From: Candidatus Brocadiaceae bacterium
Lineage (GTDB): Bacteria; Planctomycetota; Brocadiia; SM23-32
Length of the DNA: 64,000 nucleotides
NCBI GenBank assembly: GCA_012728835.1
Contig: JAAYEJ010000043.1
Location: 62,001 to 126,000, forward strand
Reading direction: 5' to 3'
A program made the position numbers and the translations under genes. The notes under the pieces were generated by a model. That model worked only from the letters and a program-made list of their open reading frames with translations, had not been told where the DNA came from and searched no databases. How positions within the stretch are numbered: position 1 is the first letter of the stretch; every line of letters begins with the position of its first letter. Positions 52,824 through 64,000 of this stretch are shown here, in pieces.

Positions 52824-55800
52824 CTAAGGTGTAGTGACGGCGGCGGCCTCCGCATAGCGCGTCGACCAGCCCTCCTTCTCCTCGATGGACGGGAACCGCC
52901 GCAGGGCGGTCAAATCGACGATTGCCCGCGGCTCAGGCGCGCCGGTGCAGGCGTCTGCAGGCACGCGTGCGCCGCGCACCGTGTCGCCCGGCGACGGCCG
53001 GAACTCCTCCTCCACGCACGCCAGCGCGATGAACGTCAGGTCCTCGTGCACGTAGGCAAAGCTCGTGACCTGCCCGACCGCCCGGCCGCCCTCGTCCAGG
53101 ATCACGTGCCCGGCCCGGAGCGTCTTGCGCCCCTGGCCGCTCAGGCGCAGGATGCCGCGCAGCGGGCCGTCGGTGCGGCGCATGTAGGCCGCCCGGCCGA
53201 TGAAGAACGGCACGTGGAAGCGCGGCACGAAGCCGTAGCCGGCCTCGGTCATCGAAAGGCCCAGGTCGCCCTCCAGTTCGTGCCCGAACAGGGGGAAGCC
53301 GGCCTCGATGCGTGTCGAATCGCGCGCGCCCAGCCCCGCCGGGACGACGCCCTGCGCGCGGCCCGCCTCCAGGCAGGTCTGCCAGAACTCGACCGCACGG
53401 TCCGGATGGAGGTAGACCTCGAAGCCCTGGATCTCGCCCGTGTAGCCGGTGCGCGCGACCCGAACCGGCATCCCGGCCAGCGTCACGACGGCGTGCTGGT
53501 TCGCGGACAGGTTGCGGATCCGGCGGCGACCGGCGGGGGCGTCGGCCAGGGCGGTGAGCGTCGCCGTCGAGGCCGGCCCCTGCAGGGCCAGCCCGGCCAG
53601 GCTGTCCTCGCCGGCATCCCGCAGGTCGCGGAACCGCACCGGGCCGTCCAGCCGCCTCGCCGGCATCTCCTCGTCGATGGCGCAGCGCCCGGACGCGACC
53701 GCATGGATCCAGTCCTTGACGCGGTCCGCGTTGGCCGCGTTCGCGACGATCATAAAGCGTTCGCGATCCAGGCGATAGACGAAGACGTCGTCGATGGCGA
53801 GGCCGTCCGGGCTCAGGATGCAGGAGTACTGGGCCTCTCCGGGGTCGAGCCGCGAGACGCAACTGGCCACCAACCCGTCCAGAAACGCCTGCGCGTGCAC
53901 GCCGCTGACCTCCAGCGCGCACATGTGCGAGACGTCGAACAGCCCGGCGGCCGTCCGGACGGCCCGATGCTCGGCGAAGATGCCCGTCGGGTACTGGACG
54001 GGCATCTCCCAGCCGGCGAAGGGCACCATCTTCGCCCCGGCCTCGACGTGGACCGAGTGGAGCACCGTGCGGCGCAGGGGCCCCTCCTCGATCGCAGGGA
54101 CGTGCGGCTCCGGCGCGGCCGGCCGCGCGGCGGCGTAGAGCACCGGCTGGCCGATGAAGTAGGGCTTGGTCAGGTCGACCTCCGGCTCGCCGTCGCAGTC
54201 CTCCAGAACGGCCTTGACGTCGGCCGGCAGGGACCGCACGTCCACGGGCTCGACGACCGTCGGGCCGTCGATCTTCGCCTGCAGGTCGCCCTCGTCGAAC
54301 AGCAGGTAGCCCTCGGACAGGCCGCGCACCCAGCGCACGACGGCGTGCGCCTGCCCGGCGTGCGGGAACAGCCACCAGCGCTCTTCGCGGCCGACGGACG
54401 GCGCCTCGAATGCGATGACGTCGTCGATCTCCTCCCCGCGGCAGTTGAACATGCGCGCGCGCACGGGCGTGCGGTCCGCCGGCAACCGTGCCGACAGCAT
54501 CTGGCCCAGCGCCAGGCGCACCTTGTCGCCGCGCAGCAGGAGGGCCGCCCGCCCGTTGTGCGCCGGCGGAGGCTCGTCCGCGACTTCGGGGCGCGGCGGG
54601 TACGGCAACTGCCGGGCGATCGCCTCCGTGCGCACGGCCGCCGACTCCAGAACCTCCGCCCGGACGCGGCCGCGGCACCGCCGTTCGCCCGCCGGCGACC
54701 AGATGGTGCACGTGTGCACGCTCCCGAGCACGGAACGGACGATGTCGGCGATCTCCCGAAGCTGCCCCTCCGTGACTCCGCGCTGGGTCAGCCAGGTCAA
54801 TCCGAACCGCAGGCCGCTCGCGTGCCCGCCGTCGGCGTCGCCGGCCAGCATGTTCTTGTTGCAGACGACTCCGGCCAGTTCCAGAAGGCGGGAGGCGATC
54901 TCGCCGTCCAGCGGCGTCGTGCCCTTCACCGGGAACGACTTCAGGTCGACCAGCAGCATGTGGGTGTTCGTGCCGCCGTATTCGAGCGTAAACCCTTGTT
55001 CAGAAAGGAGTTCACCAAACCGCCGCGTGTTCTCCACCGTCGCCCGCTGCAGCTCCCGGAACCCCTCGTAGTCCTCCAGGATGAGTTCGAAATGGCGCGC
55101 GATGCCCGCGATCGTGTTCATGTGCGGGCCGCCCTGCAGGCCCGGAAAGACGGCCATGTCGATCCGCCGTGCAATGGCAGGATCCGTGGTCAGGATCACG
55201 GCCCCGCGCGGGCCGCAGATGGTCTTGTGGGTCGTGAAGGTGACGACGTCGGCGTGCGGCAGGGGATTGGCGGCTGCACCGCCGACCACCAGCCCGGCCA
55301 GATGGGCCACGTCGGCCAGGAGCAGCGCCCCGACCTCGTCGGCGATGTCGCGCAGGGCCGCCCAATCGAAGTCCCAGGGATACGCCGAGGCGCCGCCGAC
55401 GATCATCCGCGGCCGCACCTCGCGCGCCATGGCGCGGATGCGCTCGTAATCGAGCCGCCGGGTCGCCTCGTCGATGCCGTACGAATGCACCTCGTAGGTG
55501 CGGCCGGACAGGTTGAACGGCGATCCGTGCGTCAGATGCCCGCCGTGGCCGAGTTCGAGGCCCATGATCCGGTCGCCGGGCTTCAGCAGCGCCTCATACA
55601 CCGACAGATTGGCGGCCGCACCGGACAGCGCCTGGACGTTCACGTAGATCTCGTCCGGCTCCGGACTGCCCTCCAGCCGGCCGAACGCGCGCGCAATGCC
55701 GTCGTGGGCGATCAGCTCGACGCGGTCGGCGTTCTCCGTTCCCTTGTAGAAGCGCTTGTCGGACAGGCGGGTACGCCAGCTCGCGAAACGCGGCACGTCG

Positions 55801-56024
55801 TAGGCGGCCTGCCGCGCGTCATGGCTCAGCAGGGGCTGAGGCAGGCCTTCGGCGTAGATGTTGCCCAACTCGCCCGCCAGCGGCGCCGCCGACTGCGGAT
55901 GGCAGATACTCTCGGACGGGATCATGACCAGCGTGCGCCACTGTCGATGGCGCTCCGCGTCGCACACCGAGTTCACGGCGGACTGCCGGCCATCCGACCG
56001 AGCGGCAAATGGGTATCCCGACAT
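52824..56024 (-). CDS. fused serine hydroxymethyltransferase-aminomethyltransferase (GlyA-GcvT)
   Basis: A 1066-residue fusion. Residues 1-440 are a PLP-dependent SHMT, with HGGHLTHGSPFNLSGR, LADVAHLAGLVVGG and the PLP Lys267 in TFTTHKTICGPRG. Residues 445-645 are a linker region with its own folded look (MFNCRGEEIDDVIAFEAPS, FDEGDLQAK, EVDLTKPYFIG). Residues 648-1066 are a GcvT protein, with SVHVEAGAKMVPFAGWEMP, GLFDVSHMCALEVSG, the folate-site Asp in NAANADRVKDW, and ARTGYTGEIQGFEVYL. SHMT makes serine from glycine and methylene-H4folate; GcvT makes methylene-H4folate from the aminomethyl-lipoyl H protein. Fusion could channel the C1 unit. No gcvH or gcvP lies nearby. The ATG at 56024 has GGAGG eight nt upstream. 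Confidence 0.93.
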   Translation of the reverse strand: MSGYPFAARSDGRQSAVNSVCDAERHRQWRTLVMIPSESICHPQSAAPLAGELGNIYAEGLPQPLLSHDARQAAYDVPRFASWRTRLSDKRFYKGTENADRVELIAHDGIARAFGRLEGSPEPDEIYVNVQALSGAAANLSVYEALLKPGDRIMGLELGHGGHLTHGSPFNLSGRTYEVHSYGIDEATRRLDYERIRAMAREVRPRMIVGGASAYPWDFDWAALRDIADEVGALLLADVAHLAGLVVGGAAANPLPHADVVTFTTHKTICGPRGAVILTTDPAIARRIDMAVFPGLQGGPHMNTIAGIARHFELILEDYEGFRELQRATVENTRRFGELLSEQGFTLEYGGTNTHMLLVDLKSFPVKGTTPLDGEIASRLLELAGVVCNKNMLAGDADGGHASGLRFGLTWLTQRGVTEGQLREIADIVRSVLGSVHTCTIWSPAGERRCRGRVRAEVLESAAVRTEAIARQLPYPPRPEVADEPPPAHNGRAALLLRGDKVRLALGQMLSARLPADRTPVRARMFNCRGEEIDDVIAFEAPSVGREERWWLFPHAGQAHAVVRWVRGLSEGYLLFDEGDLQAKIDGPTVVEPVDVRSLPADVKAVLEDCDGEPEVDLTKPYFIGQPVLYAAARPAAPEPHVPAIEEGPLRRTVLHSVHVEAGAKMVPFAGWEMPVQYPTGIFAEHRAVRTAAGLFDVSHMCALEVSGVHAQAFLDGLVASCVSRLDPGEAQYSCILSPDGLAIDDVFVYRLDRERFMIVANAANADRVKDWIHAVASGRCAIDEEMPARRLDGPVRFRDLRDAGEDSLAGLALQGPASTATLTALADAPAGRRRIRNLSANQHAVVTLAGMPVRVARTGYTGEIQGFEVYLHPDRAVEFWQTCLEAGRAQGVVPAGLGARDSTRIEAGFPLFGHELEGDLGLSMTEAGYGFVPRFHVPFFIGRAAYMRRTDGPLRGILRLSGQGRKTLRAGHVILDEGGRAVGQVTSFAYVHEDLTFIALACVEEEFRPSPGDTVRGARVPADACTGAPEPRAIVDLTALRRFPSIEEKEGWSTRYAEAAAVTTP

Positions 56025-56153: not shown

Positions 56154-58058
56154 TCAGCGCCGCCCGCGCACGTGTTCATTGATGTAGGACAGCACCGTCT
56201 CGTGGAAGTGCAGACGATGGCGCGGCTCGTGGACGCCGTGGGGCTCGCGCGGGTAGAGCAGGAGGCGCGTTTCGACACCGCGCGCCTTCAGAGCCCGGTA
56301 GTACTGATGCGACTGGCCCGGCGGCACGCGCAGGTCGACCTCCCCGGTGATGACCAGCGTGGGGGTGGTCACGTTGCCGACGTGGTGCAGCGGCGACTGG
56401 TCGCGCCAGAACGCGTCGTCATAGCCCGCCGCGATGCCTCCGCCGCTGTAGAGCTGGAAGTCCGGGATGTCCGTCGTGCCCCACATGCCCAGGTTGTCCA
56501 CCACGGCCGCCACGGCCACGGCGCAGCGGAAGCGCCGTGTGTGGCCGATGATCCACGTGGTCATGTAGCCGCCGTAGCTGCCGCCGAAGACGGCCATCCG
56601 GTCGCCGTCGACGAGGCCGCGTTCGATCAGCGAGTCGACGCCCGCCATGATGTCCTTGTAGGGCGCATCGCCCCAGTTGCGGACGATCCTGCGGGTGAAC
56701 GCGCGGCCGTATCCGGTGCTGCCGCTGAAGTTGGGCATCAGGCACGCATAGCCGGCCGCGCAGAAGACGTTCGGCCCGACGGCGTTCCCGTAGTTCGTCA
56801 GCGAGGCGCCGTAGGGGCCGCCGTGCGGCATCAGGACCAGCGGATAGGGCTTCCGCGCGCGCGGTTTCGTCGGCAGGTAGAAGATGCCCTCGATCTCCAG
56901 GCCGTCGCTCTTCCACGTGACGACCTCAGAACGCGCGAGCGTCACGGCCGCCATGTCGCGGTTGACGTCTGTGAGGCACTCGGACGCGCGGGACGCATCG
57001 AAGGGCACGGAACAGAGTTCGTCCGGCGCCTGCGTCGCTGAACCGACGAAGAACACAAGGCCGGCGTCTCCGGCGACGGCCGATCCGAGGGCGGCCAGGC
57101 CGCCGGTATCCAGCCGCTCCGGCGTTCCGCCCACTTCGCAGACGTAGAGTCCGTGTCCGGTGCGCACGCCCGACTCGAACAGAACCCGACCGTCGGGCAG
57201 CCACTGCGGCATGATGCTGCGAAGGTCCGCCTCCGGGTGAACCATGCGGCGCTCGCCGGAGTCGAGATCGATCACCTTCGCGGTGTCGTGAAACAGGTCC
57301 CGTTCATCGTAGGCTTCGGTGAGAAGCACGGACGCGCCGTCAGCCGATACGTGCATGGGCGCCTCCATCAGGTGGCCTCGCACCGGCCCGACCGTGCGCC
57401 GCCCCTTGCCCTTCGCGTCCACAACCTTCAGGTCGGACTCGAACCACTGCGAGTTGACGGTCGCCGTGGGGCAGGCTGTGTAGACGAGGCCCCGGCCGTC
57501 CGGCATCCAGGCGGCGCTGCTCACGTGCTCGCCGTCGGCCGAGATCCTGCGGGGCTTGCCGCGCCCGTCGGCGTTGACGACCCAGAGCGCCCGGCGGCGC
57601 TCGTCGGCATCGACGGTGCGCCAGTCGCGCTTCTCCTTGTCCCTCTTCTTCTCGTCCGGCGTCCGGTCGGGCTGCGCGATGACGGCGAGGTGCCGGCCGT
57701 CGGGGCTCCAGACGTACTTCACGACGCCCTGCTCGAAGGCGGTCACCTTCCGGCCTTCGGACAGCTCCCGCTCCATGACGCAAACCTGCCCCTTGCCTCC
57801 CTCGCGCTCGGACAGGAAGGCCAGGCGCGTGCCGTCCGGCGAGAACTGCGGCTGCCACGCCTTGCCGCTGAAGGTCACCTGCCAGGCCCCGCGCTCCCCG
57901 GACCACGCCCGGATCTCGCTGAGGTTTTCGTTCTTCTCGAGATCCGGTTTCGTCACCTGGAACGCGGCGCGCCGCCCGTCCGCGGTCGCCGTCGGGCAGA
58001 TCAGAGTGCGATTTCCGAAGATGTCCTTCACTGTGAACAGCCGCTTCGACTTCGCCAT
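56154..58058 (-). CDS. S9 family peptidase (prolyl oligopeptidase/acylaminoacyl-peptidase type)
   Basis: A 634-residue serine peptidase with no signal peptide. The N-terminal seven-blade propeller has WD40-like repeats such as PQFSPDGTRLAFLS and YVWSPDGRHLAVIA. The C-terminal alpha/beta domain has GGPYG, the nucleophile motif FGGSYGGYMT, the Asp in GEVDLRVPP and the His in YPREPHGVHEP. These enzymes cut oligopeptides or remove acylated N-terminal residues. The ATG at 58058 sits two bp after the chimeric gene's stop and has GGAGG ten nt upstream, so it is translationally linked to that gene. Open frame upstream of it is not its own coding sequence. Confidence 0.92.
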   Translation of the reverse strand: MAKSKRLFTVKDIFGNRTLICPTATADGRRAAFQVTKPDLEKNENLSEIRAWSGERGAWQVTFSGKAWQPQFSPDGTRLAFLSEREGGKGQVCVMERELSEGRKVTAFEQGVVKYVWSPDGRHLAVIAQPDRTPDEKKRDKEKRDWRTVDADERRRALWVVNADGRGKPRRISADGEHVSSAAWMPDGRGLVYTACPTATVNSQWFESDLKVVDAKGKGRRTVGPVRGHLMEAPMHVSADGASVLLTEAYDERDLFHDTAKVIDLDSGERRMVHPEADLRSIMPQWLPDGRVLFESGVRTGHGLYVCEVGGTPERLDTGGLAALGSAVAGDAGLVFFVGSATQAPDELCSVPFDASRASECLTDVNRDMAAVTLARSEVVTWKSDGLEIEGIFYLPTKPRARKPYPLVLMPHGGPYGASLTNYGNAVGPNVFCAAGYACLMPNFSGSTGYGRAFTRRIVRNWGDAPYKDIMAGVDSLIERGLVDGDRMAVFGGSYGGYMTTWIIGHTRRFRCAVAVAAVVDNLGMWGTTDIPDFQLYSGGGIAAGYDDAFWRDQSPLHHVGNVTTPTLVITGEVDLRVPPGQSHQYYRALKARGVETRLLLYPREPHGVHEPRHRLHFHETVLSYINEHVRGRR

Positions 58059-58060
58059 GG

Positions 58061-58906
58061 TCAGCCACCCTCCCCATTCAGCGCTTGTCGATCCGTTCGG
58101 TCCGGCACGCGTGCCAGATAGACGCCTGCGAGCATAACGGAGATCCCGATGATCTGCATGGGCGCGAGACGCTCTCCCATGAACAACGCGGCCCCGATGC
58201 ACGAGACGCCCGGCACGAGGTACTGGTAGACAGCCGTGCCCGACGCCGTCGTACGCCCGATGGAGCCGTACCAGAGCAGCACGCCGATGAGGCCCACGAC
58301 CACCGCTCCGCCGTCCAGCGAGAGCGTCTGCCCCTGATAGCTCGTCGACGAGGCGTTTTGGAAGCGGTCCAGCGACGCGATCACGACGTCGAACTCCTGT
58401 CCAGGCTCGACTCCGGAGGGCGCCAGGATACGCACCGTCTCGGCCGGCCCCGGCGCGACGGCCAGCCGCGGCTCGCAGTCGGGCGCCTCGCCGCACACGC
58501 GCAGCCAGACCGGCTCGGTTCCGGAAGTGTAAGGAGCGAAAGTGTTGGCATACAGCACTCGGATCGGCGCACCGGCCTCGACGGCGCCTTCGGCCAGCGT
58601 GGCGATGACGTGGCGGCCGTGCCGGCACGTGCCTTCCGGGTAGGCAAGGTTCCGCCGGCGGATCTCGACGTCGAACCGCGCCGCGCCGCCGGGCGAGTGC
58701 ACCCGCACGAAATGCGCTGCATCGGGATCGTCGGCCTGGAGTTCCCGTGTGAAACTCGGCCCGGACACAAGCAGCCAGGAGTTCGGAAACTGTGCCTCGA
58801 CCGTGTCGCCGGGCACGAGCCGCCGGTCCGAACGCAAGACGATCTCGACGTCGCACGGCTCCCGCACAACGAACTGCCGCTCCGGTGCGTCCACTCTCAG
58901 AGTCAT
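58061..58906 (-). CDS. chimeric ORF: DUF3604-type N-terminal beta domain joined to the C-terminal helices of an EamA transporter
   Basis: A 281-residue frame. Residues 1-197 read like the N-terminal beta domain of DUF3604 proteins, ending in VEPGQEFDVVIASLDRFQN and SYQGQTLSL. Directly after that, about genome position 58318, the sequence becomes hydrophobic and matches the end of an EamA/DMT permease: GTAVYQYLVPGVSCIGAALF, GERLAPMQIIGISVMLAGVYL. The PHP part of DUF3604 and the first seven or so helices of EamA are missing. The reading frame is intact across the joint. It has a good promoter and an ATG at 58906, and is coupled to the S9 peptidase. A deletion fusion or misassembly are both possible; function is unlikely to be that of either parent. 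Confidence 0.7.
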   Translation of the reverse strand: MTLRVDAPERQFVVREPCDVEIVLRSDRRLVPGDTVEAQFPNSWLLVSGPSFTRELQADDPDAAHFVRVHSPGGAARFDVEIRRRNLAYPEGTCRHGRHVIATLAEGAVEAGAPIRVLYANTFAPYTSGTEPVWLRVCGEAPDCEPRLAVAPGPAETVRILAPSGVEPGQEFDVVIASLDRFQNASSTSYQGQTLSLDGGAVVVGLIGVLLWYGSIGRTTASGTAVYQYLVPGVSCIGAALFMGERLAPMQIIGISVMLAGVYLARVPDRTDRQALNGEGG

Positions 58907-58954
58907 TCGCCGAATCCCCTGCCACAGGCCGCTTACCTTCCGCTCGCGAGCGGC

Positions 58955-58983
58955 ATGATAGGCACGCACGGGCTGTGAAACAA
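58955..58983 (-). promoter_or_regulatory. predicted promoter of the chimeric ORF / S9 peptidase operon
   Basis: Minus strand: TTGTTT (58983-58978), 17 bp, TATCAT (58960-58955); leader about 42 nt to the ATG at 58906. Confidence 0.5.
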
Positions 58984-59003
58984 GCAAAGGAACAACGGCA
59001 GGC

Positions 59004-59033
59004 ATCCACAGATTACGCAGATGACGCAGATTA
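59004..59033 (+). repeat. 30-bp repeat, copy A (CACAGATT family)
   Basis: ATCCACAGATTACGCAGATG plus ACGCAGATTA, a 30-bp copy made of three 9-bp steps (CACAGATTA, CGCAGATGA, CGCAGATTA). It is inverted relative to copies B and C and lies 70 bp from B. Confidence 0.85.
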
Positions 59034-59178: not shown

Positions 59179-59207
59179 TTGCTTGTCCTCAATGTATTTG
59201 TTACTTT
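59179..59207 (+). promoter_or_regulatory. possible promoter of the GxxExxY gene
   Basis: Plus strand: TTGCTT (59179-59184), 17 bp, TACTTT (59202-59207). The region is visibly more AT-rich than its surroundings. Another candidate, TTGCAG-17-TATTGA, follows at once. Confidence 0.35.
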
Positions 59208-59254
59208 GCAGTGCCGTAGAGGTATGTCTATTGATCTTCCGGAAGGGGGCCACG

Positions 59255-59644
59255 ATGGCCGGAGAGGACGCCACTCAGGATCCGCAGACGTATGCCATCA
59301 TCGGGGCGGCAATGGCTGTTCACACCGAACTCGGCTGCGGTTTCGTGGAGCCCGTCTATCAGGAAGCGTTGGCGCTTGAGTTGCGGCGGCAGCGCATTCC
59401 TTTTCAGCGGGAGGTTGAGCTCCCGATCTACTACAGGGATCAACGGCTCACCACCATCTACCGAGCCGACTTCATCTGTGAGGGGACCATCCTTGTCGAA
59501 CTGAAAGCGCTCGGTAAGCTGACTGAGCGTGAGAACGCACAGGTCATCAACTACCTCAAGGCGAGCGGCCTCCGGAAAGGCCTGCTCCTCAACTTCGGCG
59601 AGGTCAGCCTCCAGTACCGCCGCCTCGTCAACGGCCCACAATGA
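59255..59644 (+). CDS. GxxExxY protein (PD-(D/E)xK-like)
   Basis: A 129-residue protein of the GxxExxY family. The name-giving motif is at 29-35, GFVEPVY, preceded by AAMAVHTELGC. Further blocks are LPIYYRDQRL, YRADFICEGTILVELKAL (D, E and K spaced as in PD-(D/E)xK nucleases) and QVINYLKASGLRKGLLLNFG. The family is common in Planctomycetota, Bacteroidota and cyanobacteria; function is unknown, although nuclease ancestry is proposed from the fold. The ATG at 59255 follows GGAAGGGGG. The gene is bounded by direct 30-bp repeats and its DNA is less GC-rich than neighbours, which suggests recent arrival. Confidence 0.9.
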   Translation: MAGEDATQDPQTYAIIGAAMAVHTELGCGFVEPVYQEALALELRRQRIPFQREVELPIYYRDQRLTTIYRADFICEGTILVELKALGKLTERENAQVINYLKASGLRKGLLLNFGEVSLQYRRLVNGPQ

Positions 59645-59724: not shown

Positions 59725-60420
59725 TCAGCTCTCGTGCGGCGGCGCGTCGAAGCGGTAGCCGATGCCCCGCACGGTCTGGATATATATGGGCCGGTGCTGG
59801 TCCGGCTCGATCTGCCGGCGGAGGGTGTTCACGCACTGATCGACGCTGCGCGGCGTCACGAAGACGCTGTGCCCCCAGACGGCGTTGAGCATCTGGTTGC
59901 GCGTCAGCGCCCGGCCCTCGCGTTCGACCAGCAGCACGAGCAGGTCGAACTGCTTCGGCGTCACGTGGATCTCTTCCCCGTCGCGGCTGAGCCGGCGGGC
60001 CTGCAGATCAAGGGCGAACGGACCGAACCGGATGACCTGCGGCCGCTCCCGCCGGCGACGCCGCAGCAGCGCCGCCACGCGCGCCATGAGTTCCAGCACG
60101 CCGAACGGCTTCGTGACATAGTCGTCCGCGCCGAGTTCAAGCCCCAGGACGACATCCGACTCCTGCCCCTTCGCCGTGAGCATGATGACGGGCATTTCGA
60201 GTCCCTCGCGGCGGATGAGGCGGCAGACCTCATAGCCGTTGATCCTGGGCAGCATGATGTCGAGCACGATCAGGTCCGGCCGGGCGTCCAATGCCGCGCT
60301 CAGCCCTGTCTCGCCGTCGGCGGCGGTAAGGACGCGGTAGCCTTCGAACTCGAAGTTGCCCTTCAGCCCCTCGAGCATCGCCGCATCGTCTTCCACAATC
60401 AGGATCGTCTCGTCGGGCAT
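59725..60420 (-). CDS. OmpR/PhoB-family response regulator
   Basis: A 231-residue regulator. The receiver domain (1-120) has the acidic pair Asp11-Asp12, the phosphoacceptor Asp54 in LIVLDIMLP, Thr82 and Lys104 in DDYVTKPFG. The C-terminal winged helix (about 130-228) has LTRNQMLNAVWGHSVFVTPRS and the end VRGIGYRFD. It should bind DNA as a dimer when phosphorylated by the histidine kinase encoded 11 bp upstream. The ATG at 60420 fits the family start. Target genes are unknown; the partner operon member is the TPR/pseudopilin-like gene. Confidence 0.95.
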   Translation of the reverse strand: MPDETILIVEDDAAMLEGLKGNFEFEGYRVLTAADGETGLSAALDARPDLIVLDIMLPRINGYEVCRLIRREGLEMPVIMLTAKGQESDVVLGLELGADDYVTKPFGVLELMARVAALLRRRRRERPQVIRFGPFALDLQARRLSRDGEEIHVTPKQFDLLVLLVEREGRALTRNQMLNAVWGHSVFVTPRSVDQCVNTLRRQIEPDQHRPIYIQTVRGIGYRFDAPPHES

Positions 60421-60430
60421 GGTTGATGCC

Positions 60431-62284
60431 TCAGGCCTCCGTCTCGCGGGCGATGGGCACCCGCACGGTGAAGGTGCTGCCCTCGCCCGGGGTGCTCTCG
60501 ACGTCTATGGTGCCGCCGTGCGCGTCTACGATGAACTTCACGATGCTCAGGCCCAGGCCGCAGCCTTCGGCGCGGCGCGCCAGATGGCTGTCGGCCTGGA
60601 AGAAGCGCTCGAAGGCGCGCCGTGCTTCACGCCGTGACATGCCGATGCCGTTGTCGGAGACGCGGAAGCAGACGGCGCCGTCAGCCGTCTCGGCCGAGAG
60701 TGCGATGCGCTTGTCCCGGCCGGTGTACTTACAGGCGTTGTCCAGCAGGTTGAGCAAGACGGTCACCAGCGCGTCGTGGTCGCCGCTGACCGCCGGCAGC
60801 GCTGGCGGCACGTTGACGTCGAATCGGCAGCCGCTCGCGCTGAACCGCTCGGCCACAACGTTCGCCGCCTCGTGAACGACCTCCTCGGGATGCAGTTCCG
60901 CCATTTCGAACGCCCGCTTGTTGCGCTCCATGCGTGAGAAGGTCAGGAAGTTGTCGATCAGCCGGGCCAGCCTTTCGTTCTCGCTGACGAGCAGGTCCAG
61001 GTAGCGCCGCGCCTGCGCCTCGTTCTCGAACCGCCCCTCGCGCAGTGTTTCAGCGAACATGCGGATGCACGCCAGCGGCGTCTTCAGCTCGTGCGTCACG
61101 GTGGCGACGAAGTCGTTCTTCAGCCGCGTCAGCTTCGCCTGCCGCAGCAGCGAGCGCCCGCCGACCAAGGCCAGAAGCACGACGGCGCCGATGCTCAGCA
61201 GCCCGGCCCAGAGGTAGCCGGCCGTCTCCCGCCCTGCCGCCTCGGAGAAAGGATCGCCGCCCTCCAGCATCAGCGCCAGCCGCCATCCGGGAAGCCGGTC
61301 CCCCGGCGATGCGGTCAGGAAGGCCTCCCCGCCATCCGGCGCACCCGGACGGCGCAGCACGATCGACGCGCCGGGCATGGCTCCGGTCTCCCGCGCGAGG
61401 AGCTGCATCTCGTCCAGCAGCCCCTCCTCGCAAAACAGCCCCACAACGCGGCCGTCGGCCGACGCGAGCCGCCAGACGCCCGGCAGCCCGGACGCCGTCA
61501 GCTCCGGCGCCGCAGGCGGTGTGGGGATGCGGGCCAGGTAGTCGGCCGCCAGGTCCTCGGCCGCGAGCGTGGGAAAGGCGAGCGCCTCCCCCTCAGTCTC
61601 TCGCAGCCGATGCATGAGGAAGCGGCGCTGCGCGGGCGGCATGGCGGGAGGGCCGTAGTCGTTCAGGCGTGCGATAAGCGCTTCGCGCAGTGCCAGGCGG
61701 CGGGCGTCGGCCGAATCCGGGATCAGTTCCAGCGCACGCAGCCCGGCCGGAGGCGCGACGAGACGGCCGGCGGAATCCCGGACCTCCGCCTGCCCGGGAT
61801 CCGAAAACAGCCCCCCCAGCAGGTCCGCGGCCTTCGCGGCGTCGCCTGCCGTCACCAGGGACTGCGCCTCGGCCCAGACGCCCGGCGGACGGGGAGTGAT
61901 CGCGGGCAGCACGGCGGCCGGCGCCGGATAGGCCACGCCTCCGGCTTCGTCATAGATGACGGCGGCGTCGCACGCGCGGGAAGACACAAGCGCGGCAAAC
62001 CGTTCCGCCGGCGGCGCCTCGGCGGCCGTCTGTTCAAGGCGGCCGGCCTTGTCGTTCCAGCGGTTCGAGACCGCATCCGCCGCCGCGTGCAGCCGCGGCT
62101 CATACACGTCGATCAGCTTCTGCCGCACGGCCAGGCGCGTGTTCCGCACGGCCTGCCCCATAAACCAGAGCACACAGGCCGTCGGCACGGCGACCGCCAG
62201 CGCCAGCAAGAGGAGCAGGCGCCACGACCCGCCACCTGCCCCAGCGCCCGTGCTGCCCACCCGTCTGAACTCACTCCTTGCCAT
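60431..62284 (-). CDS. membrane sensor histidine kinase with large extracytoplasmic domain
   Basis: A 617-residue kinase. A transmembrane helix lies near residues 22-42 (LLLLLALAVAVPTACVLWFM), a periplasmic part of about 310 residues follows with no recognised domain, and a second helix is near 360-385 (AGLLSIGAVVLLALVGG). The HisKA motif VTHELKTPL holds His398; the N-box is LLDNACKYTG, the G boxes DNGIGMS and GCGLGLS. It would phosphorylate the response regulator at 59725-60420. The ATG at 62284 overlaps the upstream gene by 14 bp, so the three genes are coupled. The unusually long sensor domain is Ala/Pro-rich. Signal unknown. Confidence 0.95.
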   Translation of the reverse strand: MARSEFRRVGSTGAGAGGGSWRLLLLLALAVAVPTACVLWFMGQAVRNTRLAVRQKLIDVYEPRLHAAADAVSNRWNDKAGRLEQTAAEAPPAERFAALVSSRACDAAVIYDEAGGVAYPAPAAVLPAITPRPPGVWAEAQSLVTAGDAAKAADLLGGLFSDPGQAEVRDSAGRLVAPPAGLRALELIPDSADARRLALREALIARLNDYGPPAMPPAQRRFLMHRLRETEGEALAFPTLAAEDLAADYLARIPTPPAAPELTASGLPGVWRLASADGRVVGLFCEEGLLDEMQLLARETGAMPGASIVLRRPGAPDGGEAFLTASPGDRLPGWRLALMLEGGDPFSEAAGRETAGYLWAGLLSIGAVVLLALVGGRSLLRQAKLTRLKNDFVATVTHELKTPLACIRMFAETLREGRFENEAQARRYLDLLVSENERLARLIDNFLTFSRMERNKRAFEMAELHPEEVVHEAANVVAERFSASGCRFDVNVPPALPAVSGDHDALVTVLLNLLDNACKYTGRDKRIALSAETADGAVCFRVSDNGIGMSRREARRAFERFFQADSHLARRAEGCGLGLSIVKFIVDAHGGTIDVESTPGEGSTFTVRVPIARETEA

Positions 62285-64000
62285 GTGCCCCTTCCAGGCG
62301 CGCGACCTCCTGCCTCAGGATTTCCACCTTCTTGATGGTGCCTTCATAATCCGCTTCTGCCCGCACGCAACGCAGTTCCGCTTCCGCAGCCACGCCCGGC
62401 TCGCCGACGCCACTCTGGTGAGCGGCCTCTGCGCGCTTCAGTGCCATTTGAGCGAAATGGACCTCCGCCCTGCCCTTGACGAGATCGGCCTCCGCCTCCG
62501 CAAGGCGGATGCGCAGGTCGGCAAGCTGCGCTGCGGTGCCCATGCTGCCCGCAGCCGTGTCATCGCTGCCTGCCGCAGTCCGGATGACGTCGTCGCCGGT
62601 GCCCTGTATCCCACTGACGTCGTCGCCGGTGCCCTGTATCCCACTGACGTCGTCGCCGGTGCCCTGTATCCCATCCGGGCCGTCGCTGGTGAGCCTGCAG
62701 AGACCGGGGCCGTCGGGGATGGGGAATGCGTAGCGGTAGGGCTTCCCCCATGGGTCGTTGGGCGACGACACGGCCCTGATGTACGGCCCATGCCAGTCCG
62801 CAACGCCTGCCGGCCGGGCGATGAGTGCATCGAGCCCCTGATCCGTCGTGGGAAAGGAACCGGTGTCAATCTCATACAGGGCCAAGGCGGTTCCCAGAGA
62901 GTCAAGGTCGGCAAGGAACGCCTGGGAGGGGGACGTCGCGGCGCCGACCATCTTGTACCTCACCATGACACGGCCCGCTCCGCCGCCGTTGTTCTGCAAG
63001 AACTGCAGCAAACCACGGCCTCCCTCCGCTGTCTGGAATGCGTAGACGACAGGCAGTCTGTCCCGTTCAAAGGCGAAGCGCGACTGCCCGGAACCGACAG
63101 CGGGCAGCGCCATGGCGGCAAGTTCCGCCGCAGAAAGGCCATGCCACGTGTCGGGGGTGCAAAGCCGAATGGCCGCATCGAACCCCGTCAGCTCCATCTT
63201 GTCCCCCCCGGTGTCGCATCCGGCGTCCACGCCGAATGCCCGCAGTGGAGCTGCGCTATTATCCAACTCATCGAGAGAGTAAACCTTCCCGCTCTCGAAG
63301 TCGACAAGGACGTTTTTGCCGCGCCCGAAGTCGGGCGGCAGCTCGATCATCGAACGGAACGCGGGCGTCGCCACTTCGGCCGGAACGTCCTGCACCAGCT
63401 TATAGCGGATCTTGACACCTCGCGGCGCCTGATCGCGCAGCTCCAGGATCTGCAGAATGCCTCTGCCCCCCTCGCGGGTCTTCAGCAGGTACGTGGCGGG
63501 AAGTGTCCCCTTCGCACTCATGAACACGGGGAAGCCCGGCACTCCCTTGCTGAGCATCTCCTCCTGCTCGAAGAAGGCCGGCTCGATCGTGTCCCACTCG
63601 GAGCTATGACACGGCACGACGACTACGTCGATCCCCGCAAGCCCGCCCTGCGGACCGGCCGTCTCCCCCGCCGCATCTATGCCCAGCTTGCGGATCGCGG
63701 CGAAGATCGCGTCTTCGCTCGCTGCTCGACCCACGCCCAAGTCCTGGGGCGAGTAGACTTTGCCCTTGTCAAAATCGATGAAGAAGTCGACGCCGTCGCT
63801 GTCATCGTTGACGAAACGTTCGATGACCGGCCCGAAGACAAGTTGCCCGGACGCCGGTACCGGTGGCTCCAGCTTCGCCAGTTCGTCCCGAGCCGAGCGC
63901 ACCAGCGCCTCCTGGTCCGCGTAACGTTCGGAGACCAGGGCGAACTGCTCAAGCGCCTTCTCCTTCTCCCCCTTGGCTAACAGGCACTTGCCGAGACGGT
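62271..64000 (-). CDS. large multidomain protein with TPR, duplicated beta domain, GspG-like pseudopilin segment and coiled coil (partial)
   Basis: Incomplete: about 576 residues are visible and the 5-prime end lies beyond the window. The first visible part, LGKCLLAKGEKEKALEQF, is a TPR motif. Two homologous domains of about 140 residues follow, each with DF-x2-GKVYS, a Trp region, LP-x-TY/YAF, T-x-EGGRG-x-LQ and IRYK/VRYK endings. Next comes a type II secretion GspG-like C-terminal segment: FPTTDQGLDALIARP, WHGPYI, DPWGKPYRY and DGPDGIQGTGDD, expanded by a 30-bp tandem repeat. A coiled coil closes the protein. It overlaps the kinase gene by 14 bp. Embedded pseudopilin domains without a prepilin N-terminus here suggest a non-pilus role, perhaps sensing. 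Function unknown. Confidence 0.75.
   Translation of the reverse strand, partial: RLGKCLLAKGEKEKALEQFALVSERYADQEALVRSARDELAKLEPPVPASGQLVFGPVIERFVNDDSDGVDFFIDFDKGKVYSPQDLGVGRAASEDAIFAAIRKLGIDAAGETAGPQGGLAGIDVVVVPCHSSEWDTIEPAFFEQEEMLSKGVPGFPVFMSAKGTLPATYLLKTREGGRGILQILELRDQAPRGVKIRYKLVQDVPAEVATPAFRSMIELPPDFGRGKNVLVDFESGKVYSLDELDNSAAPLRAFGVDAGCDTGGDKMELTGFDAAIRLCTPDTWHGLSAAELAAMALPAVGSGQSRFAFERDRLPVVYAFQTAEGGRGLLQFLQNNGGGAGRVMVRYKMVGAATSPSQAFLADLDSLGTALALYEIDTGSFPTTDQGLDALIARPAGVADWHGPYIRAVSSPNDPWGKPYRYAFPIPDGPGLCRLTSDGPDGIQGTGDDVSGIQGTGDDVSGIQGTGDDVIRTAAGSDDTAAGSMGTAAQLADLRIRLAEAEADLVKGRAEVHFAQMALKRAEAAHQSGVGEPGVAAEAELRCVRAEADYEGTIKKVEILRQEVARLEGAHGKE
62585..62674. repeat. 30-bp in-frame tandem repeat, three copies
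   Basis: Units 62585-62614, 62615-62644 and 62645-62674; the last diverges at its final two bases. It encodes repeats of the decapeptide DGIQGTGDDV-type (SGIQGTGDDV) on the minus strand, extending the calcium-site-like end of the GspG segment. Confidence 0.9.

What the first reader, a model, noticed from the sequence alone, without database searches (positions are those of the whole stretch)
62271..64000. Two-component system coupled to a TPR, duplicated-domain and GspG-like protein
The partial gene overlaps the histidine kinase start by 14 bp, and the kinase is followed by a response regulator, so all three are likely made together. The protein combines a TPR, two copies of an unassigned domain (GKVYS ... 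EGGRG ... RYK) and a pseudopilin-like C-terminal segment with D-rich repeats. Pseudopilin cores normally sit after a type IV signal helix, but here they are internal. This looks like an unusual signalling accessory, possibly presenting a calcium-binding or secretion-like module to the 310-residue sensor domain.
Basis: partly seen in the sequence, partly recalled or inferred. Interest (0 to 1): 0.65.

Follow-up and report, generated by a model that had tools for sequence, protein, structure and literature searches.

The report
Exported TPR partner of sensor kinase
The gene at the window's edge encodes an exported protein made together with a sensor kinase and its response regulator; it is one version of a three-gene signalling set that recurs across the bacterial phylum Planctomycetota, and it carries an unnamed domain that relatives attach to several other kinds of membrane signalling protein.

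Summary
The full gene, completed from the parent contig, encodes a 644-residue exported protein: signal peptide, TPR module, two copies of an unnamed domain ("DOM"), a GspG core with no pilin helix, and a coiled coil. It overlaps the histidine kinase by 14 bp, and a PhoB-type regulator follows 10 bp later.

(1) The trio recurs. In sampled Planctomycetota genomes, 19 of 35 genes with this TPR module sit beside an HK/RR pair, against 1 of 49 control loci. The TPR module stays constant while the C-terminal half varies. The kinases share a sensor that itself contains TPR repeats. (2) DOM has no Pfam or NCBIfam name, folds with high predicted confidence (pLDDT 95.5), and occurs in 52 loci, nearly all PVC genomes. 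It is fused to Ser/Thr kinases (28) or BlaR1-type peptidases (10), past a transmembrane segment in 41 of 41 proteins tested. In all three TPR+DOM loci an HK and RR follow, as here. One relative carries DOM inside the kinase's own sensor.

Best reading: an extracytoplasmic accessory sensor of the kinase, working like ExoR-ExoS-ChvI. The GspG loop exactly matches a published calcium-binding motif. Direct binding, its sign and the signal are untested.

The parts
62271..64000 (-). Exported partner protein, C-terminal 575 of 644 aa; the gene continues to position 64205 in window numbering, on the same contig
63870..63998 (-). In-window part (residues 70-112) of the N-terminal TPR module; the signal peptide and first TPR lie beyond the window
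63390..63845 (-). DOM copy 1 (residues 121-272), unnamed PVC extracytoplasmic domain
   Evidence: AlphaFold pLDDT 95.5
62943..63371 (-). DOM copy 2 (residues 279-421), divergent
62643..62924 (-). GspG (T2SSG) core without pilin helix (residues 428-521)
62649..62681 (-). GPDGIQGTGDD (residues 509-519), exact PERCAL calcium-binding motif
62585..62673 (.). 30-bp tandem repeat x3, 100% identical, duplicating part of the calcium loop (SGIQGTGDDV)
62274..62519 (-). C-terminal heptad-like coiled-coil segment (read from sequence)
   Evidence: a similar segment in L023
60431..62284 (-). Histidine kinase: TM 23-41, TPR-containing and PAS-like sensor 42-357, TM 358-376, HisKA 389-454, HATPase_c 501-612
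59725..60420 (-). PhoB/OmpR-type response regulator

Best explanation
The three genes form a three-component extracytoplasmic signalling system. The first gene makes an exported protein whose N-terminal TPR module docks on the TPR-containing periplasmic sensor of the histidine kinase. Its C-terminal half (two DOM copies plus a GspG core with a calcium loop) receives the signal and changes the docking, which switches the kinase, which phosphorylates the PhoB-type regulator. Supported by sequence and comparison: export signal, module make-up, gene coupling, recurrence of the trio, TPR repeats in the kinase sensor, DOM as an extracytoplasmic domain of signalling proteins. Inferred: direct docking, docking through the TPR, direction of control, the nature of the signal, and calcium's role.
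For: Trio in distant phylum-mates, in TPR-HK-RR or HK-RR-TPR order; 19/35 against 1/49, Fisher p 1.9e-8. Kinases beside TPR genes share sensor homology, and their sensor profile matches TPR chains. All 3 TPR+DOM loci in GTDB genomes are followed by HK and RR. L073's kinase carries DOM copies inside its own sensor, next to a partner with four DOM copies. DOM lies past a TM segment in 41/41 fusions to Ser/Thr kinase, M56 or ECF sigma. Exact PERCAL motif in the GspG loop.
Against: No contact data; complexes could not be modelled. 16 of 35 TPR-module genes have no HK/RR neighbour detected, though several sit at contig ends. The seed profile included HK-linked rows. In the window's own class the kinase sensor is nearly unique. 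The AlphaFold model of the sensor is only moderate (pLDDT 75) and Foldseek found no clear match.
Confidence: 0.62

Rival explanations
1. The exported protein is a target rather than a sensor: an envelope protein (scaffold or stress-responsive factor) regulated by the adjacent two-component system and co-transcribed for that reason.
For: Adjacent genes are often targets. The C-terminal halves vary widely (HEAT, DUF3352, STN-like, DUF3108, laminin-G) and 16/35 TPR genes lack an HK neighbour.
Against: The TPR gene precedes and overlaps the kinase in the window. DOM sits in the kinase sensor of L073 and in the exoplasmic part of other signalling proteins, which favours an input role.
Confidence: 0.22
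2. The GspG core and calcium loop give a structural, calcium-stabilised fold or surface attachment with no signalling role; only the TPR and DOM parts matter. (This can hold together with the best explanation, so the confidences overlap.)
For: GspG cores are appended to unrelated planctomycete proteins with DUF1579 or DUF1259 domains. L185's partner has the core but its calcium loop is missing.
Against: The nearest relative of the window's core is the core of another kinase partner (55% over 75 columns, SH-aLRT 90, not starred). The loop is tandemly tripled.
Confidence: 0.4
3. DOM is an HmuY-like haem-binding domain and the system senses haem.
For: The top eight Foldseek hits are all HmuY-family proteins, probability 0.75-0.99.
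Against: Best E 2.6e-3, TM about 0.5, large rmsd. No conserved His or Cys (at most 9% and 11%) and Met at most 32% in the DOM alignment.
Confidence: 0.05
4. Chance neighbours: an unrelated envelope gene that happens to overlap a two-component operon.
For: The window's own sensor-kinase type is rare in its class.
Against: Recurrence in many families, both gene orders, short gaps or overlaps.
Confidence: 0.05

Closest known systems
ExoR-ExoS-ChvI (RSI switch, Sinorhizobium; PMC4550343)
   Same: Exported helical-repeat protein controls the periplasmic domain of a histidine kinase that acts with a response regulator
   Different: ExoR is built of Sel1 repeats; here the repeats are TPR and are followed by DOM, GspG and coiled-coil parts. 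No sequence relation was tested, and binding is not shown here.
QseG-QseE-QseF (PMC12691602)
   Same: Gene for an accessory envelope protein lies in the kinase/regulator cluster and is conserved with it; QseG binds and activates the kinase
   Different: QseG is an outer-membrane lipoprotein acting through its C-terminal domain; the window protein has an SPI-like signal peptide and other domains
VbrK/VxrA histidine kinases (reviewed in PMC8534201)
   Same: Kinase sensor with TPR-like plus PAS-like parts; a sensing protein has been proposed to bind the TPR part
   Different: Foldseek did not list them among the 50 best matches of the window sensor
GspG major pseudopilin
   Same: T2SSG core and calcium-loop motif
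   Different: No type IV pilin helix; internal position; below the TIGR01710 cut-off
BlaR1-like M56 peptidases and Hanks-type Ser/Thr kinases of PVC bacteria
   Same: Carry the same DOM on the far side of a TM segment
   Different: There DOM is fused to the output domain in one protein; here it is on a separate exported partner

Membership tests
Two-component system (HK + PhoB-type RR) | HisKA, HATPase_c, receiver and winged-helix output domains | tested here: met
Planctomycete TPR/HK/RR trio (defined here) | Exported protein with the TPR module next to HK and RR genes | tested here: met
Planctomycete TPR/HK/RR trio (defined here) | Kinase sensor homologous to those of other trios, with TPR | tested here: met
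ExoR-ExoS-ChvI | Sel1 repeats in the exported protein | tested here: not met
   No Sel1 hit in the window protein or homologues; TPR families instead
ExoR-ExoS-ChvI | Direct inhibition of the kinase by the exported protein | not testable with these tools
   needs biochemistry
GspG pseudopilin | T2SSG core | tested here: met
GspG pseudopilin | N-terminal prepilin signal and hydrophobic helix before the core | tested here: not met
   DOM copy 2 precedes the core; no TM segment found in the protein
GspG pseudopilin | TIGR01710 equivalog cut-off | tested here: not met
   63.1 bits against 88.85
PERCAL calcium motif | G-x-D-G-x-x-[GN]-[TN]-x-D-D | tested here: met
   One exact match; two further copies partial (PMC3396595)
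PERCAL calcium motif | Calcium binding | not testable with these tools
   needs calorimetry
HmuY haem-binding family | Fold | tested here: inconclusive
   E 2.6e-3, TM about 0.5
HmuY haem-binding family | Conserved His or Met haem ligands | tested here: not met
VbrK/VxrA-type sensor | TPR-like plus PAS-like periplasmic sensor | tested here: inconclusive
   TPR by profile; PAS-like by the secondary structure of a moderate model; VbrK or VxrA not among the Foldseek matches shown

The most novel reading that the evidence does not exclude
Planctomycetota and their PVC relatives use a shared, undescribed extracytoplasmic input domain (DOM) that is plugged interchangeably into four signalling outputs (Hanks-type kinase, BlaR1-type peptidase, ECF sigma, histidine kinase), and a phylum-wide family of three-component systems keeps the input on a separate exported TPR partner that docks on a TPR-containing kinase sensor.
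Probability: 0.5. Interest if true: 0.75.

Novelty: new variant of a known kind. Interest (0 to 1): 0.6.

Why it matters
What planctomycete signalling proteins sense is largely unknown. A single input domain shared by four output types, with a separable exported partner in the histidine-kinase version, makes the question testable: a ligand found for one DOM could point to the stimulus class of many kinases and proteases. It would also extend accessory-protein control of histidine kinases, known from a few proteobacterial cases, to a phylum-wide design with interchangeable sensing ends.

Tried and rejected
Direct searches with the window kinase sensor found almost nothing in the class and few in the phylum, which at first suggested an isolated arrangement; the upstream genes of the distant hits and the TPR-module profile overturned that. 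A first alignment was too divergent for the GTDB scan; a tighter one worked. The DOM profile found no PDB relative by sequence. The haem-sensor idea was rejected for lack of conserved ligands. Capture of the window's GspG core from the genome's own type II pilin was not supported. Most long-ORF GspG hits were true pilins whose open frame merely extends far upstream; only L233, L239 and L240 were further helix-less cases. The DOM tree is mostly unresolved and says little about the number of fusion events. No sigma-70-like promoter was found upstream. Searches of the open paper library returned no description of this trio; that library lacks most subscription journals.

Full report
What is there. 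The ORF at 62271..>64000 (-) is the 3' part of a gene that completes on the same contig (G000:C43; the window is bases 62001-126000). The full product has 644 residues: a signal-peptidase-I-like leader (ATAQA|EE, read from sequence), a TPR module (about 27-112), two copies of an unnamed domain I call DOM (121-272, 279-421), a GspG core (428-521) and a coiled-coil tail. It overlaps the kinase start by 14 bp; HK and RR are 10 bp apart. Pfam names the GspG core (3e-22, cut-off 21 bits, scored 79), the kinase and the regulator, but not DOM; NCBIfam agrees. PDB chains of GspG match residues 426-521. The D-rich repeats are one 30-bp unit in three identical copies.

Calcium loop. The first copy, GPDGIQGTGDD at residue 509, fits the published PERCAL motif G-x-D-G-x-x-[GN]-[TN]-x-D-D exactly; the other two lack the leading Gly and the first Asp. 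PERCAL was defined from bacterial peroxidases and found in the GspG structure 3G20, where it coordinates calcium; a motif peptide bound calcium at 33-79 uM (PMC3396595). Calcium binding here is therefore likely but untested.

DOM is a real domain family. An iterated profile found it in M56 peptidases, an ECF sigma factor and other proteins. A scan of GTDB species genomes returned 52 loci, nearly all Planctomycetota, Verrucomicrobiota and relatives; a few records labelled as other phyla are probably mis-binned (one is identical to a Pontiellaceae locus). By local profiles, checked with Pfam on 20 proteins: 28 loci have DOM fused to a Hanks-type kinase, 10 to an M56 peptidase, 3 to the TPR module, and 11 are unassigned (short contigs or exported proteins). 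In all 41 proteins where DOM is fused to a kinase, M56 or ECF domain a predicted TM segment lies between output and DOM (simple hydropathy; this set includes a few loci fetched twice from different collections), so DOM is most likely extracytoplasmic. AlphaFold2 with 65 sequences gives pLDDT 95.5, pTM 0.88. Foldseek's top eight PDB hits are all HmuY-family proteins, but weak (best E 2.6e-3, TM about 0.5), and no His, Met or Cys is conserved, so haem binding is not proposed. No PDB chain matches the DOM profile by sequence.

The trio recurs. The kinase sensor alone finds almost nothing in the class. Two distant phylum-mates, however, showed an exported TPR-module gene directly upstream of a homologous kinase and regulator (L117, L118). 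A profile of the TPR module then found it in 33 of 197 sampled genomes. Of 35 fetched loci, 19 have HK or RR next door on the same strand, in either order. As a control, 1 of the 49 DOM loci without the TPR module has any HK; Fisher p 1.9e-8. Caveats: the seed rows included HK-linked genes, several of the 16 negatives are at contig ends, and the control loci are not random genes. All three GTDB loci with TPR plus DOM (L073, L086, L095, all labelled Phycisphaerae) have HK then RR directly downstream, the window's layout. The C-terminal halves of partners vary: HEAT, DUF3352-like, DUF3108/Big_5, laminin-G, STN-like, GspG.

Kinase side. Kinases beside TPR genes share their sensor region. The sensor-family profile matches TPR chains strongly. 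The AlphaFold model of the window sensor (pLDDT 75, 23 sequences) shows TM, helices 124-241, a mixed alpha/beta stretch 250-329 of PAS-like order, TM; Foldseek gave no clear match, so this part is tentative. In L073 the kinase has DOM copies inserted in this same sensor, while its upstream partner has four. The same domain occurring in the partner and in the kinase's sensor is the strongest single hint that partner and sensor act together.

GspG core. Its nearest relative in a small tree is the core in another trio's partner, L185 (55% over 75 columns, SH-aLRT 90, not starred), not the genome's own type II pilin (46%). Helix-less cores occur in at least three other planctomycete proteins, L233, L239 and L240, so an internal GspG core is uncommon but not unique.

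Mechanism. Shown by sequence and comparison: export signal, domain make-up, coupling, recurrence, shared sensor family, extracytoplasmic placement of DOM. Inferred: the partner docks on the sensor (perhaps TPR to TPR), DOM and the calcium-loaded core sense, the kinase switches. ExoR-ExoS-ChvI (PMC4550343) and QseG-QseE (PMC12691602) show that accessory envelope proteins can inhibit or activate kinases; VbrK/VxrA kinases have TPR-like plus PAS-like sensors, and a sensing protein has been proposed to bind the TPR part (PMC8534201). The window system works like these but is not shown to be a member of any. The main rival is that the exported protein is a regulated target.

Novelty. Accessory-protein three-component systems are known; this phylum-wide TPR version and DOM appear undescribed in Pfam, NCBIfam and the open papers searched. 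I call it a new variant of a known kind, interest 0.6.

Noticed in passing
L011:3088-4356 (-) (own genome, contig C53): ECF sigma factor fused through one TM segment to a DOM copy: a one-protein transmembrane sigma factor.
   Followed up: partly
L073:335-6232 (+), Phycisphaerae SM23_33: Partner with four DOM copies, followed by a histidine kinase with further DOM copies inside its sensor.
   Followed up: partly
L013:3563-6286 (+) (own genome, contig C12): Exported-looking protein with a DOM copy and ankyrin repeats.
   Followed up: no
L233:4525-7755 (-), L239:4671-6065 (-), L240:3612-5537 (-): GspG cores without a pilin helix attached to DUF1579, to DUF1259, and to a multi-TM protein.
   Followed up: partly
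window 52824-56024 (-): One ORF joins serine hydroxymethyltransferase and glycine-cleavage T protein (GcvT) domains.
   Followed up: no
window 59183-59644 (+): Small PD-(D/E)XK nuclease family protein (PDDEXK_3) just beyond the regulator, on the opposite strand.
   Followed up: no
window 56154-59009 and 58061-59005 (-): S9 prolyl oligopeptidase ORF overlapping, in another frame, an ORF with a partial EamA transporter match; the true gene starts are unclear.
   Followed up: no
L067 and L092: A record labelled Deltaproteobacteria carries DOM copies identical to those of a Pontiellaceae record with a similar isolate name: probable mis-binning.
   Followed up: no
L182 and L183: Kinases with the same sensor family lie next to CheW-like and methyl-accepting-protein-like genes (judged by eye) rather than a detected TPR-module gene.
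   Followed up: no
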